DNA from: Marinobacterium aestuarii
GTDB taxonomy: Bacteria > Pseudomonadota > Gammaproteobacteria > Pseudomonadales > Balneatricaceae
NCBI RefSeq assembly: GCF_001651805.1
Contig: NZ_CP015839.1
Span: forward strand, 558,001 to 622,000
Direction: 5' to 3'
Length of the DNA stretch: 64,000 nucleotides
A program made the translations under genes and the position numbers. Shown piece by piece: positions 27,241 to 32,816 of the stretch. The notes below the pieces were generated by a model, which searched no databases, was not told the DNA's origin, and saw only the letters and a program-made list of their open reading frames with translations. The stretch's first letter is position 1. Each line of letters opens with the position of its first letter.

Positions 27241-27461
27241 TGCCGTTTGCTCTGTGCGTTGTCGGCGGCGATGGCGGGCGGATTGATCATGCAGGTTTGC
27301 GGTGAGCGTGAACATCATGCAGGATGTGCAGGATGGCTTAATCACGGATGAAACCAGATGGGATCTGCTGGGGTATTTGATTGCAGAGTCTTGCTCTGCC
27401 GCCGCATCGTAGCGCCGAAGTCGACCGGGCCCTGTGGGCTCAATCAAGTCAGGAGCCGTTG

Positions 27462-30242
27462 ATGTCAGCAGGACGCAGGAAGATGTCTGCTTGTATAGCG
27501 CAACGCCGCATGCCCTATCCAGGTCTTATCCTGGTGTCTGCTGTTGCGCCGATGCTATGGCCATCGGCCTCAATGGCGGCCGACGTACTTGAGAATCCCG
27601 CGCCTGTGATGGCCGCACTGTTGGTGATGCTTGCGCTGACCCTGGCGGTGCTGGCTAGCGTCTGTTATCGCAGCCGGCAGCAGCAGGTGCAACTGCGGGC
27701 ACTCGAAGCCGGCCAGTATCGTTATAGAGCCATCTTCGATGCCCTGCCCGAGGCGGCTTCGATCAAGAGCGCCAGTGGCCAGTATCTGGATTGCAATCGC
27801 GCCTTCGCAGAATTCACCGGTTTGAACGCTGAGGTGCTGTTAGGGAAAACCAGCGGTGACATATTCTCGGTGTCCGACGGACAGCGCATCTCGGCGCAGG
27901 AGCGTCGTGCGCTGAAGACCGACGGCATCTTCCGGAGTGAAGACTGGGTGCATGGTGCCGGGCGCCGGCCGCGCCTGGTCAGTTTTCTGCGTACCCGCCT
28001 GCCGGTTCAGGGGGCGCAGGAGCCGGCGCTGCTTGTCATTGGCAGCGACATTACGGAGCAGCGTCAGGAAGAGGTCATCACGCGGCTGCAGAACATGACG
28101 CTGGATTGCCTGCTGCGCGGTATTGCCCTGACCACGGTACTTGAGCGGCTGGTCGAAACGGTGGAGCAGGCCTACCCCGGCCTGCTTTGCTCGGTCATGC
28201 TGCTGGACAAGGATCGATTGCTGCGCTCCACGGCGGCACCTTCACTCCCCGACTATTTTCGCGAAGTTTCAGATGGACTGGCTGCGGCCGAAGGCGTGGG
28301 TGCCTGCGGTACGGCCGCCGCCACCGGCAAACGGGTGCTTGTCGAGAATGCGCAGGAACACCCCTATTTCACCTCTTTTGTAGAACTTGTTGCCCGCGCC
28401 AATATTGTCGCCTGCTGGTCGGAGCCCGTGCTGGGCAGCCACGGTGAAGTCCTGGGGACCTTATGCCTGTACTCGCCCGAAGCCGGTGGGCCTACGCCGG
28501 CACAGATCAAGCTGCTGGAGCAGGCGGCACGGCTGGTGAGTCTTGCGGTGGAGCGCAGCCAGCGCGAAGATCAGCTGCGTAAGCTGTCGCGGGCGGTGGA
28601 ACAGAGCTCCAGCATGGTAGTCATTACTGACGCCAGCGGCATTATTGAATACGTTAACGAAGAATTCTGTGACGTCACCGGCTACAGCGTCGAGGAAGCC
28701 CTGTCGCAGCGGCCATCGCTGCTGAAATCCGGCGAGACCGATGCCGAGGTGTACCGCAGCATGTGGCAGGCATTGCTGGCGGGGCAGGACTGGCACGGCG
28801 AAATCCGCAATCGTCGCAAGTCCGGTGCGCTCTATTGGTCGGCGCTATCGGTGTCGCCAATTCTGGACGAAGATGGCAGCGTAACCCACTTTATCGGCAT
28901 CAGTGAGGATATCTCCGCCCAGAAACATTCCCAGGCGCAGATCGAGCAGCTCGCCTTCTACGACCCCCTTACTCAGCTAGGTAACCGGCGGCTGTTCCGC
29001 GAGCAGCTGGACCAGGAGCTGCGCAAGGTGCGCCGTACCGGCCAGCAGCTGGCGGTGTTCTACCTGGATCTGGACAACTTCAAGCAGATTAACGATACCC
29101 TGGGGCATGATGTCGGTGACCGGTTGCTGCAGGCGATCGCCGGACATCTGCGGGTGACGCTGCGCGAGACCGATATTATTGCGCGCCTGGGCGGTGATGA
29201 ATTCATCATACTATTGCCCCAGGTGACCGGTCTGGCACAGGCCAAAAAGGTGGCGGAGAAGCTGCTTAACGCACTGCTGACGCCTATACCTGTGGCCGGA
29301 CATGAAGTGCTGATTACCTTCAGTATTGGTATCACGCTGGCGCCTGATGACGGTGATACCTGGTCTGTACTGATGAAGAACGCAGATCTGGCGATGTACC
29401 GTGCCAAGCGCCAGGGGCGCAATAACTATCAGTTCTTCACCCGCGAAATGAATGAGGAAGTCATGCGGCGGGCGCAGATGGAAGCCGAGTTGCGCACCGC
29501 GCTGGAGGAGGGGCACTTCACCCTGGTGTATCAGCCGCAGTGGAATTTGCTGGGCGGCTTGCAGCTGGTGGGCATGGAGGCCCTGATCCGCTGGCACCAT
29601 GCGGAACGTGGCTGGATTTCACCGGTCGAGTTTATTCCGGTGGCCGAGGAGCTGGGTCTGATTGTGCCGCTGGGCAACTGGGTGATTCACGAAGCCTGTC
29701 GGGCCGGTTTCCATCTGGTCGAGCAGGGGCATGACGTCAAGGTGGCGGTGAACCTGTCGCTGCGCCAGTTCCGTGACCCGAACCTGTTGAATACGGTGCG
29801 TCTGGCGTTGCAGAACAGTGGGCTCGAGGCGCGCTACCTTGAGTTCGAGATCACCGAGTCCATGATCATGGATGATATCAGCCGGGTGCTTGAAATTCTG
29901 GGGGCGCTCAAGGACCTGGGGGTGACGCTGTCTATCGATGACTTTGGCACCGGCTATTCGTCGCTGAGCTATCTCAAGCAGTTACCCGTGGATCAGCTCA
30001 AGGTGGATGCCTCCTTTGTGCGCGATATTCCCCATGATCGCAACGACATGGAAATTGCCGCCGCGGTTATCGCCATGGCCCACAAGCTGGGGCTCAAAGT
30101 GGTGGCGGAAGGTATCGAAACCCCGGCGCAGCTGGCCTTCCTGCGGGAGAACCGCTGTGAGATGGGGCAGGGTTACCTGCTGGCGCGCCCTATGCCGCTG
30201 GAGTCCGTGCTACAGCTGCTTGAGGTGGAGCTGACCGACTGA
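27462..30242 (+). CDS. Membrane PAS-GAF-PAS-GGDEF-EAL cyclic-di-GMP protein
   Basis: 926 residues from ATG 27462 (AGGAG 6 nt upstream). Two hydrophobic N-terminal stretches (about 20-40 and 48-70), a PAS domain (about 85-200, YRAIFDALPEAASIKS), a GAF domain (about 215-370), a second PAS (about 380-500, VVITDASGIIEYVNEEF), GGDEF (motif at 577-581) and EAL (EALIRW from 706, DDFGTGYSSL, VAEGIET). Both catalytic signatures are intact. The inhibitory RxxD site is present (RETD before IIARLGGDEF), so cyclase activity should be product-inhibited. The 221-bp upstream gap shows no c-di-GMP riboswitch that I can recognise. Confidence 0.92.
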   Translation: MSAGRRKMSACIAQRRMPYPGLILVSAVAPMLWPSASMAADVLENPAPVMAALLVMLALTLAVLASVCYRSRQQQVQLRALEAGQYRYRAIFDALPEAASIKSASGQYLDCNRAFAEFTGLNAEVLLGKTSGDIFSVSDGQRISAQERRALKTDGIFRSEDWVHGAGRRPRLVSFLRTRLPVQGAQEPALLVIGSDITEQRQEEVITRLQNMTLDCLLRGIALTTVLERLVETVEQAYPGLLCSVMLLDKDRLLRSTAAPSLPDYFREVSDGLAAAEGVGACGTAAATGKRVLVENAQEHPYFTSFVELVARANIVACWSEPVLGSHGEVLGTLCLYSPEAGGPTPAQIKLLEQAARLVSLAVERSQREDQLRKLSRAVEQSSSMVVITDASGIIEYVNEEFCDVTGYSVEEALSQRPSLLKSGETDAEVYRSMWQALLAGQDWHGEIRNRRKSGALYWSALSVSPILDEDGSVTHFIGISEDISAQKHSQAQIEQLAFYDPLTQLGNRRLFREQLDQELRKVRRTGQQLAVFYLDLDNFKQINDTLGHDVGDRLLQAIAGHLRVTLRETDIIARLGGDEFIILLPQVTGLAQAKKVAEKLLNALLTPIPVAGHEVLITFSIGITLAPDDGDTWSVLMKNADLAMYRAKRQGRNNYQFFTREMNEEVMRRAQMEAELRTALEEGHFTLVYQPQWNLLGGLQLVGMEALIRWHHAERGWISPVEFIPVAEELGLIVPLGNWVIHEACRAGFHLVEQGHDVKVAVNLSLRQFRDPNLLNTVRLALQNSGLEARYLEFEITESMIMDDISRVLEILGALKDLGVTLSIDDFGTGYSSLSYLKQLPVDQLKVDASFVRDIPHDRNDMEIAAAVIAMAHKLGLKVVAEGIETPAQLAFLRENRCEMGQGYLLARPMPLESVLQLLEVELTD

Positions 30243-30272: not shown

Positions 30273-30304
30273 CTGTCATGAATCTGTCATTAATCGGGCA
30301 TAGT
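30273..30304 (+). promoter_or_regulatory. PHO box (PhoB site) and -10
   Basis: CTGTCAT-GAAT-CTGTCAT (30273-30290) is two identical 7-bp direct repeats with a 4-bp spacer, a match to the PhoB consensus. A candidate -10, CATAGT (30299-30304), follows 8 bp later, where a PhoB-activated promoter should have it. The next gene starts at 30344. Confidence 0.8.
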
Positions 30305-30343
30305 CTGGCGGCCAGAATGTCGCTAGCTCCCGGTGAATAACGC

Positions 30344-32113
30344 ATGCAGTCAAGCCTTCACACAGCGCCCGTGGCGAACGAACTCAGTGTGCTGGACACC
30401 ATTATTCGGGATGAAAACCTGACCCCCTATTTTCAGCCCATTGTCGATCTTCAGAGCGGTGAAGTGATCGGCCATGAAGCGCTGATACGTGGCCCCCAGG
30501 ACAGCGCCATGCAGATGCCGGGGCCTTTGTTCGCAGCCGCACTGGCCGAGGGCCGCCTGGCGGAACTCGAATTGCTGTGCCGGCGCCTGGCGTTGCAGCG
30601 TTTTGCCGAACTGCGCCCCGCCGGCAAATTGTTTCTGAATATCAATGCGTCCCTGCTCGGCATGCCGGGTCACCCCCAGGGCCTGACGCTGGAATGGCTC
30701 GAGCAGCTGAAAATTCCCCAGGCCAGCATTGTTATCGAGTTGTCGGAGCAGCATCCGTTTGATCATTGCGGCCTGACGCAGACCGCCGTGCGTCACTATC
30801 AGGACATGGGCTTTGGCATTGCTATCGACGATCTTGGCTCCGGTTATTCAGGGCTGCGGCTCTGGTCGGAGCTGCAGCCAGCCTACGTCAAGATCGACAA
30901 GCACTTTGTGCGCGGTATTGATCAGAACAGCGTGAAACGCGAGTTCGTCAAATCCATTATCAATATAGGTAACAGCACCCGCTGTCGTGTCGTCGCCGAG
31001 GGGATTGAGACCCGCGGGGAGCTGCATACGCTGCAGCTGCTGGGTGTCGGTTTTGGCCAGGGCTTTTTGCTGGGCAAGCCCCAGTCGCTGCCGGTCGCGG
31101 CGGCGGCGTGCCGCCATATCGCCATGACGCCGAGGCGTGCCAGTCGGGATAATGAGCGTGCCGAAACCGCCGCCGTACTGCTCAGGTCTGCACCGGCGGT
31201 GACGCTGGACGACAAGATCGATGCCGCCAGTGTGCTGCTGCGCCAGCACCCGGATCTGACCCTGATTCCGGTGCTGGATGATGGCCAGCCCGTGGGCGTG
31301 CTGCGTCGACAGGAGCTGTGGGAGCTCTATTCCAGCCAGTATGGTCGGGCGCTGTATGAGCAGCGTTCTGTGAGCCACATCATGCAGCGTGATTTTCTGG
31401 CGGTTGAGGTGGGCATGCCGCTGGAGCAGGTATCGCAGGTGCTGACCGAGCAGGAATCCAGCCTGATGCAGCAGGATATTCTTATCGTTCAGGATGGCAG
31501 CTATCTGGGCATGGGCAATGTACGTGATCTGTTGCGCACTATTACCGAGCTCAAGATTCGCACGGCCCGCTATGCCAATCCGCTGACGTTGCTGCCGGGC
31601 AATGTGCCGGTGAACGAGGAACTTGATCGCCTGCTCGAGGGCGCCTGTGATTTCCACGTGGCCTATTTCGACCTGAATCAGTTCAAGGCCTATAACGATC
31701 GCTACGGCTATGCCCGGGGTGATCGGGTGATACGACACCTCGGCGATCTGCTGGCGCGCCATGCCAGTGCACCTGATACCTTCGTGGGTCATATCGGCGG
31801 TGACGATTTCGTGGTGATCTTCCGCCACGGACTCTGGAGAGCGGCCTGTGAACGCATTCTGGAAGAGTTCGGCCAGTCGGTAAGTGAATTCTATGATCCG
31901 CAGCATTTGAAGGACGGCGGTATCTGGGCGCAGGGGCGCGAAGGCGGCCGTCAGTTCCATGAATTGCTGGGGCTCGCCGTCGGCGTGGTGCACCCAGACC
32001 CTTATCGCTGCCCCGGCTTTGGGGAAGTGGCGGAGCTTGCCGCCGAGGCCAAGAAGGCCGCCAAGACCACCCGCCTGGGTCCTTTGTATCTGTCCCCGCG
32101 CCGCGCCCTCTGA
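30344..32113 (+). CDS. EAL-CBS-GGDEF protein, probable PhoB-regulated cyclic-di-GMP phosphodiesterase
   Basis: 589 residues, soluble. N-terminal EAL domain (1 to about 260: YFQPIVDLQSGEVIGHEALI, NINASLLG, DDLGSGYSG, VAEGIET), a CBS pair (about 275-405) and a C-terminal GGDEF domain whose motif is GGDDF (485-489). The Glu-to-Asp change at the fourth motif position suggests weak or no cyclase activity, so the GGDEF part may be a GTP sensor or regulatory. EAL residues look intact apart from DDLG for the usual DDFG. The upstream PHO box predicts induction by phosphate starvation. In Pseudomonas fluorescens the EAL protein RapA is Pho-controlled and releases biofilm; whether this protein is its counterpart is not known. 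Confidence 0.9.
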   Translation: MQSSLHTAPVANELSVLDTIIRDENLTPYFQPIVDLQSGEVIGHEALIRGPQDSAMQMPGPLFAAALAEGRLAELELLCRRLALQRFAELRPAGKLFLNINASLLGMPGHPQGLTLEWLEQLKIPQASIVIELSEQHPFDHCGLTQTAVRHYQDMGFGIAIDDLGSGYSGLRLWSELQPAYVKIDKHFVRGIDQNSVKREFVKSIINIGNSTRCRVVAEGIETRGELHTLQLLGVGFGQGFLLGKPQSLPVAAAACRHIAMTPRRASRDNERAETAAVLLRSAPAVTLDDKIDAASVLLRQHPDLTLIPVLDDGQPVGVLRRQELWELYSSQYGRALYEQRSVSHIMQRDFLAVEVGMPLEQVSQVLTEQESSLMQQDILIVQDGSYLGMGNVRDLLRTITELKIRTARYANPLTLLPGNVPVNEELDRLLEGACDFHVAYFDLNQFKAYNDRYGYARGDRVIRHLGDLLARHASAPDTFVGHIGGDDFVVIFRHGLWRAACERILEEFGQSVSEFYDPQHLKDGGIWAQGREGGRQFHELLGLAVGVVHPDPYRCPGFGEVAELAAEAKKAAKTTRLGPLYLSPRRAL

Positions 32114-32195: not shown

Positions 32196-32816
32196 ATGGC
32201 TGGCGGCTGGAAACCCCGTTTTGGCGTCGCTGATTTTCACATCAGCGCCGACGAAGCGCTGCATCATGGCTTTTTCAAACTCGACCGCGTAACGGTGACG
32301 CACCGCTGTTTTCTGGGCGGCGAAGCCAGCATTCAGCGCGAGCTTTACCGGCGCCGTGATGCTGTCTGTATACTGCCCTATGATCCGGTGCTGCGTTCCG
32401 TGGTGCTAATCGAACAATTTCGTGTCGGCACCCTGGATCATCCGCGGGGCCCCTGGCAGCTCGAGCTGGTGGCGGGTCTGGTGGAACCGGGGGAGAGCGC
32501 CGCGGATGTTGCGCGCCGTGAAGCCGTGGAGGAAGCCGACCTGCAGCTGGGGGCTATCGAACCCATCAGTCGCTTTACGCCCAGTCCAGGCGCCGCCCGT
32601 GAGTATATTGATCTGCTTTGTGCCCAGGTGGATGCCAGTCAGGCCGGGGGTGTTCATGGCCTGGCGGAAGAAGGTGAGGACATTCTCGTGCATGTGCTGT
32701 CGCTGGACGACGCCTGTGCGCTGGTGCGGGATGGGGTGATCGATAACGCCCCGGCGATCATTGCGATACAATGGCTGCAAATGCACAGCCCGCGACTCGA
32801 ACAGCAGTGGGTGTAA
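32196..32816 (+). CDS. nudF: ADP-ribose pyrophosphatase
   Basis: 206 residues, NUDIX fold. The box is GLVEPGESAADVARREAVEEADLQ, with catalytic EE; the usual last Gly is Asp. Upstream strands (VLIEQFRVGTLDHPRGPWQLE) and TPSPGAAREYIDLLCAQVD match NudF. It hydrolyses ADP-ribose to AMP and ribose-5-phosphate. Order nudF-yqiB-cpdA-yqiA-parE is as in E. coli. GGGAG precedes the ATG. Confidence 0.93.
   Translation: MAGGWKPRFGVADFHISADEALHHGFFKLDRVTVTHRCFLGGEASIQRELYRRRDAVCILPYDPVLRSVVLIEQFRVGTLDHPRGPWQLELVAGLVEPGESAADVARREAVEEADLQLGAIEPISRFTPSPGAAREYIDLLCAQVDASQAGGVHGLAEEGEDILVHVLSLDDACALVRDGVIDNAPAIIAIQWLQMHSPRLEQQWV

What the first reader, a model, noticed from the sequence alone, without database searches (positions are those of the whole stretch)
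30273..30304. Textbook PHO box in front of an EAL-CBS-GGDEF cyclic-di-GMP enzyme
CTGTCAT-GAAT-CTGTCAT is an exact direct repeat with the spacing PhoB needs, and a -10-like CATAGT lies at the right distance. The gene behind it has a good EAL domain and a degenerate GGDDF. The prediction is that phosphate starvation induces a c-di-GMP phosphodiesterase, lowering c-di-GMP and favouring dispersal. RapA of Pseudomonas fluorescens is a known parallel, but the EAL-CBS-CBS-GGDEF architecture here is different.
Basis: partly seen in the sequence, partly recalled or inferred. Interest (0 to 1): 0.78.

Follow-up and report, generated by a model that had tools for sequence, protein, structure and literature searches.

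The report
Phosphate-starvation switch for c-di-GMP breakdown
A marine bacterium carries a phosphate-starvation control site in front of an enzyme expected to destroy the "stay attached" signal c-di-GMP; it resembles the known RapA switch of Pseudomonas fluorescens, and the same site sits in front of most relatives of the gene that were examined.

Summary
The box is real: CTGTCAT-GAAT-CTGTCAT at 30273-30290 is the only exact match in the 5.19 Mb genome, 53 nt before an EAL-CBS-GGDEF gene of a Marinobacterium-like genome that encodes PhoB. Of 187 relatives, 121 carry a box scoring at least 11 of 14, against 13 of 1673 control windows. Among these 121, a -10 (TAnnnT) lies exactly 10 nt after the box in 64, and at no other tested offset in more than 8. 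So the likely -10 is TAGTCT (30301-30306), not CATAGT. The genome's phoB and pstS-like gene have the same geometry. [quoted passage not shown] An adjacent lapG-lapD pair, RapA's known output, is present. Verdict: most likely a RapA-type, PhoB-activated phosphodiesterase, a new member of a known kind. The fresh part is the breadth of conservation (148 of 187 by a relaxed criterion). Nothing was measured.

The parts
30273..30279 (+). PHO box, first heptamer CTGTCAT
   Evidence: only exact two-heptamer site in the genome
30284..30290 (+). PHO box, second heptamer CTGTCAT, 11 nt from the first
   Evidence: 121 of 187 relatives have a box of at least 11/14
30295..30301 (+). Weak third heptamer CGGGCAT in the same 11-nt register (5 of 7)
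   Evidence: overlapping match 30284-30301, two mismatches
30301..30306 (+). Probable -10 element TAGTCT, starting 10 nt after the second heptamer
   Evidence: TAnnnT at this offset in 64 of 121 relatives, at most 8 of 121 at each of the 25 other offsets; -10-like hexamers at the same offset at the genome's own pstS-like gene and phoB
30344..32113 (+). RapA/PA3258-type EAL-CBS-GGDEF protein, 589 aa: EAL 20-246, CBS region about 275-408, GGDEF (GGDDF) from 413
   Evidence: Pfam; alignment A1; AlphaFold2 model, mean pLDDT 80.8, pTM 0.49
27381..30242 (+). Neighbour, not part of the promoter: PAS-GAF-PAS-GGDEF-EAL protein ending 30 nt before the PHO box
   Evidence: Pfam; ORF list
32196..32816 (+). 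Neighbour: NUDIX hydrolase gene
   Evidence: Pfam NUDIX

Best explanation
It is a PhoB-activated promoter in front of a RapA-type c-di-GMP phosphodiesterase. When phosphate is scarce, PhoR phosphorylates PhoB. A PhoB dimer binds the two CTGTCAT repeats, which stand in for the missing -35, and recruits RNA polymerase to the -10 TAGTCT ten bases downstream. The EAL enzyme made then lowers c-di-GMP, LapD loses its ligand, LapG is released and cuts a LapA-like surface adhesin, and cells detach. Shown here: the box, its uniqueness in the genome, its conservation, the -10 spacing, a phoB gene, intact catalytic residues and a lapG-lapD pair. Inferred from RapA: PhoB binding, induction, the fall in c-di-GMP and the detachment. 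The role of the CBS and GGDDF parts (nucleotide gating, or some residual cyclase activity) is a guess.
For: Only exact site in the genome. PhoB over the curated cut-off. Box of at least 11/14 in 121 of 187 relatives versus 13 of 1673 control windows from the same loci, 0.3 to 1.9% of shuffles and 5 of 187 reverse complements. TAnnnT at offset 10 in 64 of 121, a feature not used to select sites, in 20 of 40 taxon labels. Relaxed criterion met in 148 of 187: own family 68/75, f21 17/17, f27 16/16, other families of the order 28/49, rest of the class 19/30. Same geometry at own phoB and pstS-like gene. GTCAT-N6-GTCAT is the head-to-tail motif that PMC8041468 gives for P. aeruginosa PhoB (passage). 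No sigma-70-like -35/-10 pair at this promoter. EAL residues E45, N99, E132, D162, D163, K183, E219, Q239 invariant in 33 of 33 aligned (roles recalled). LapG and LapD genes adjacent. RapA precedent: PMC3032545 (abstract and passages). PA3258 shows PDE behaviour when overexpressed in Salmonella (PMC12900916, passages).
Against: 39 of 187 relatives fail even the relaxed criterion: 7 in the own family, 21 in other families of the order, 11 in the rest of the class. The second copy in G031 (62% identical) scores only 9.5. One genus (g10, 11 rows) has sites of only 8.5 to 10.5. Rows are related, so not independent trials, and the control windows are largely coding DNA. G030, of the same genus, has no match at E 1e-60. 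No LapA adhesin was looked for. PMC4513871 (P. aeruginosa PhoB and TctD, main text searched) does not mention PA3258. No wet evidence from Marinobacterium.
Confidence: 0.88

Rival explanations
1. The promoter is PhoB-controlled but the enzyme's net output is not simple c-di-GMP removal: the conserved GGDDF domain makes c-di-GMP or senses GTP, and the CBS pair senses an adenine nucleotide, so the protein is a tunable bifunctional enzyme.
For: GGDDF and residues D443, N451, D452, G459, D460 are invariant in 33 of 33 aligned. PA3258 shows apparent cyclase activity once its EAL site is inactivated (PMC12900916, passages). PMC9394441 also suggests possible cyclase activity (passage).
Against: With the EAL domain intact PA3258 behaves as a phosphodiesterase. 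RapA depletes c-di-GMP in vivo (PMC3032545). In genus g5 the 7 relatives found have open frames of only 284-333 aa matching just the EAL part (Pfam not run on them), yet all 7 score 12 or 13 of 14 for the box, which points to the EAL activity as what is kept under PhoB.
Confidence: 0.25
2. The box serves a neighbouring gene or a small RNA, and its position before this gene is incidental.
For: Genes on both sides run in the same direction, and the consensus scan lists no terminator between this gene and the NUDIX gene, so read-through is possible.
Against: The box tracks this gene in different gene neighbourhoods: NUDIX gene downstream in the window, tail-specific protease gene upstream in the three f21 loci whose neighbours were examined (L205, L206, L210).
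Confidence: 0.04
3. Chance match to a consensus; no regulation.
For: Consensus matches alone are weak evidence: at up to 3 mismatches 9 sites occur in the window against a mean of 4.9 by chance, and in the genome 69 sites at up to 2 mismatches stand against 35 for the backwards control.
Against: The exact match is unique in 5.19 Mb; conservation and the -10 spacing are far above controls.
Confidence: 0.02

Closest known systems
RapA of Pseudomonas fluorescens Pf0-1 (locus Pfl01_1678, recalled)
   Same: PhoB-activated phosphodiesterase with a Pho box upstream, acting through LapD-LapG (PMC3032545, passages); [quoted passage not shown] The window gene has that architecture, a box and a lapG-lapD pair.
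   Different: About 43% identity to f21 proteins taken as stand-ins; gene neighbourhood differs (NUDIX gene downstream here, tail-specific protease gene upstream in f21); no experiment in Marinobacterium.
PA3258 of Pseudomonas aeruginosa
   Same: EAL-CBS-GGDEF order and PDE behaviour (PMC12900916, passages).
   Different: No statement of phosphate control of PA3258 itself was seen in the passages read; the main text of PMC4513871 does not mention it.
Vibrio cholerae PhoB control of the c-di-GMP pool (acgAB; gene names recalled)
   Same: Phosphate limitation and PhoB lower biofilm formation and change the c-di-GMP pool (review PMC4741415, passages).
   Different: The primary paper was not held, so architecture and sites were not compared.

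Membership tests
Pho regulon promoter (PhoB-activated) | Two CTGTCAY-like heptamers, 11-nt period | tested here: met
   30273-30290, exact
Pho regulon promoter (PhoB-activated) | -10 about 10 nt after the second heptamer, no good -35 (spacing recalled from E. coli) | tested here: met
   TAGTCT at offset 10; TAnnnT there in 64 of 121 relatives; no sigma-70-like pair reported here
Pho regulon promoter (PhoB-activated) | Genome encodes PhoB and other Pho genes with like sites | tested here: met
   PhoB 349.6 bits over cut-off 296.2; phoB and pstS-like sites
Pho regulon promoter (PhoB-activated) | Site conserved before relatives | tested here: met
   121 of 187 strict, 148 of 187 relaxed; 39 of 187 lack it
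Pho regulon promoter (PhoB-activated) | PhoB binding and low-phosphate induction | not testable with these tools
   Needs EMSA or a reporter
RapA/PA3258 phosphodiesterases | EAL-CBS-GGDEF order | tested here: met
   Pfam on the window protein and on one f21 protein; EAL 33/33, GGDEF 33/33, CBS 32/33 of the aligned members
RapA/PA3258 phosphodiesterases | Intact EAL catalytic residues | tested here: met
   Invariant in 33 of 33 aligned; roles of residues recalled
RapA/PA3258 phosphodiesterases | Orthology to the named RapA or PA3258 sequence | tested here: inconclusive
   No named Pseudomonas record was at hand; three f21 loci sit beside a tail-specific protease gene, as PA3258 does beside PA3257 (recalled); quick tree holds f21 within the family
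RapA/PA3258 phosphodiesterases | LapD/LapG output present | tested here: met
   LapG and LapD genes adjacent near G000:C1:2.981 Mb
RapA/PA3258 phosphodiesterases | Lowers c-di-GMP and adhesion in low phosphate | not testable with these tools
   -
Standard diguanylate cyclase | GG(D/E)EF signature | tested here: not met
   GGDDF at 485-489, invariant in 33 of 33 aligned

The most novel reading that the evidence does not exclude
PhoB control of this one phosphodiesterase family is an old, widely kept wiring of the Gammaproteobacteria and not a Pseudomonas speciality: phosphate starvation is coupled to c-di-GMP removal through the same gene in most lineages that have it, and selection keeps the box even where the protein has been reduced to its EAL domain or the leader has been stretched by an insertion.
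Probability: 0.65. Interest if true: 0.6.

Novelty: new member of a known kind. Interest (0 to 1): 0.42.

Why it matters
RapA is a well worked example of phosphate starvation causing biofilm detachment. If its PhoB site is kept in most lineages with the gene, low phosphate becomes a general and testable dispersal cue in Gammaproteobacteria, with one predicted gene, promoter and output to test in each.

Tried and rejected
CATAGT as the -10: rejected, because alignment by the box puts the conserved TAnnnT at offset 10, not 8.

A different architecture from RapA: rejected on PMC12900916. Ten literature searches were made over open-licence papers only; I saw titles and the starts of abstracts (one search showed 20 of 36), and none of these reports class-wide conservation of the site. 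That is weak evidence of absence. The primary RapA paper and the V. cholerae acgAB paper were not held.

Co-occurrence of LapG with this gene across 116 family genomes: 73 both, 3 gene only, 24 LapG only, 16 neither, Fisher p 1.6e-6. Not used as evidence of function: genome size and relatedness confound it, and the LapG Pfam family may hold other proteins.

Own-genome near-matches: of 30 loci I listed ORFs for 7 and ran Pfam on one gene near each of 6. I had assumed that these loci were turned to the box's strand; they are in genome orientation, so for the minus-strand sites the genes chosen do not lie downstream of the box. These results are not used. NCBIfam gave no equivalog over its cut-off for the window protein. 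A PDB sequence search (E up to 1e-10) listed matches to the EAL part only. A structure-library search was not obtained.

In one search the -10 pattern also allowed TGnnAT. A third heptamer contains TGTCAT and so matches it at offset 5 (42 of 187 rows); offset 10 had 114 of 187 and the other offsets tried 1 to 14.

Rows left out before counting: the second G031 copy (reported apart), G012 (fragment, not fetched), L271 (partial match, anchor unsure), and genomes met twice. M. sedimentorum L048 counts as a strict miss although a 13/14 box is present at -231.

Full report
What is there. The window lies in a 5.19 Mb genome. Its nearest named relatives by this protein are Marinobacterium profundum (95%) and M. 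sedimentorum (92%). At 30273-30290 stands CTGTCAT GAAT CTGTCAT. It is the only exact CTGTCAT-N4-CTGTCAY in the genome on either strand; 5 sites have one mismatch and 63 have two, and the same pattern read backwards gives 35 sites in all against 69. A third, weaker heptamer continues the 11-nt period. The gene behind it (30344-32113, 589 aa) has EAL, CBS and GGDEF domains. An AlphaFold2 model (mean pLDDT 80.8, pTM 0.49) shows two strand-strand-helix units at 307-330 and 378-408, consistent with a tandem CBS pair; domain placement is not reliable at that pTM.

Is the site conserved? Relatives were collected at E up to 1e-60 in the family (76 of 116 genomes; in the own genus 6 of 7) and at E up to 1e-80 in the order (95 of 390) and class (33 of 369). 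After removing repeats, the second G031 copy, one unfetched fragment (G012) and one partial match (L271), 187 rows had usable upstream DNA. The score is mine: 14 positions of the two heptamers, half a point for C at the seventh. 121 of 187 reach 11 or more near the aligned start (-140 to +10): own family 52 of 75, f21 13 of 17, f27 14 of 16, other families of the order 25 of 49, rest of the class 17 of 30. Control windows from the same loci, largely coding DNA, reach it in 13 of 1673 cases, dinucleotide shuffles in 0.3 to 1.9% by group, and the reverse complement of the same windows in 5 of 187. Spacers other than 4 nt reach it in 0 to 8.9% of trials by group, an excess over the shuffles that may come from the repeats themselves.

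An independent feature. The sites were selected on the box alone. Aligned by the box, the downstream sequence shows one further conserved element: TAnnnT beginning exactly 10 nt after the second heptamer, in 64 of 121 rows and 20 of 40 taxon labels. The best of the other 25 offsets tried gives 8 of 121. I recall the same spacing for E. coli Pho promoters. The consensus scan finds no -35/-10 pair at this promoter, as expected for an activator-dependent one. Of the 66 rows under the strict threshold, 27 have a box of at least 9/14 with a -10 (TAnnnT or TGnnAT) at offset 10. Counting these, 148 of 187 qualify; 12 of 1673 control windows meet that second criterion. All 17 f21 rows qualify; by eye these promoters show three heptamer-like repeats ending in TGAAAT, which lies at offset 10 from the second repeat.

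Own-genome controls. phoB is preceded by TCGTCAC-ATCT-CTGTCAT with TGTAAT 10 nt later. A gene with a PBP_like_2 domain, holding the genome's only match (weak, below cut-off) to the PstS model, is preceded by CTGTCAC-ATTA-GTGTCAT with TATAGT 10 nt later. The window site shares their geometry and scores higher: 14, against 11.5 and 12.5. A P. aeruginosa study gives GTCA(C/T) half-sites, head to tail, 6 nt apart, as the PhoB motif (PMC8041468, passage); the window has GTCAT-N6-GTCAT.

Exceptions. 39 of 187 rows fail even the relaxed criterion: 7 in the own family, 21 in other families of the order, 11 in the rest of the class. A second, 62% identical copy in G031 scores 9.5. The 11 rows of genus g10 score 8.5 to 10.5. 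In M. sedimentorum (L048) about 160 nt are inserted between promoter and gene; the box is kept at -231 but counts as a strict miss. In genus g5 the 7 relatives found have open frames of 284-333 aa that match the EAL part only, yet all 7 score 12 or 13. On a quick tree (177 rows), rows with boxes lie on both sides of the midpoint root; the deep branches are weakly supported and the rows are not independent trials.

What the protein does. E45, N99, E132, D162, D163, K183, E219 and Q239 are invariant in the 33 sequences aligned, a selection of the rows; from knowledge of EAL enzymes this predicts an active phosphodiesterase. GGDDF is also invariant there, with residues around it that I recall as substrate-site positions, so the domain is conserved for some purpose. 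PA3258 behaves as a phosphodiesterase in Salmonella overexpression and shows apparent cyclase activity once the EAL site is inactivated (PMC12900916, passages), so a purely dead GGDEF domain is doubtful.

Relation to what is known. RapA of P. fluorescens Pf0-1 is expressed in low phosphate through PhoB and a Pho box, depletes c-di-GMP and causes LapD/LapG-dependent detachment (PMC3032545, abstract and passages). PMC12900916 states that PA3258 is EAL-CBS-GGDEF and RapA its homologue; PMC9394441 calls PA3258 a putative RapA orthologue. The window genome has adjacent lapG and lapD genes, so the RapA output path is at hand; a LapA adhesin was not sought.

Judgement. The window gene is best read as a RapA-type phosphodiesterase under PhoB control. 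As a single finding it is a new member of a known kind. The added value is the breadth of the conserved promoter, which I did not see in the titles and abstract starts listed by ten searches of an open-licence library.

Noticed in passing
L048, about 18-177 nt upstream of the start codon (M. sedimentorum relative): An insertion of about 160 nt sits in the leader between the Pho promoter and the start codon; the box is kept at -231.
   Followed up: partly
L202-L218 (f21 loci), roughly 5-40 nt upstream of the aligned start: By eye, a terminator-like hairpin with a T run lies right after the conserved -10, between the Pho promoter and the start codon. It may end the upstream protease transcript or act as an attenuator.
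   Followed up: no
L058, L064, L065, L068, L073, L077, L081, L086 (8 of 11 rows of genus g10): The divergent site TTTTCAC-TCAA-ATGTAAT is identical in these rows and still followed by TAnnnT at offset 10, so it looks like a genus-specific version of the box.
   Followed up: partly
L108-L114 (genus g5): Relatives whose frames cover only the EAL part keep a strong PHO box.
   Followed up: partly
L016-L044 (mostly Elusimicrobia): The C-terminal part (about 390-588) has matches at 36-47% identity in Elusimicrobia, Omnitrophota and a few others, hinting at a separate, widespread subfamily of this GGDEF-like domain.
   Followed up: no
PMC9394441, section on PA3258: The paper places PA3258 residues 112 and 166 in a GGDEF domain and 456 and 535 in an EAL domain, the reverse of the EAL-first order seen in the f21 protein here and stated in PMC12900916.
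   Followed up: no
window 27381-30242: A PAS-GAF-PAS-GGDEF-EAL protein lies directly upstream, so two c-di-GMP enzymes are in tandem.
   Followed up: no
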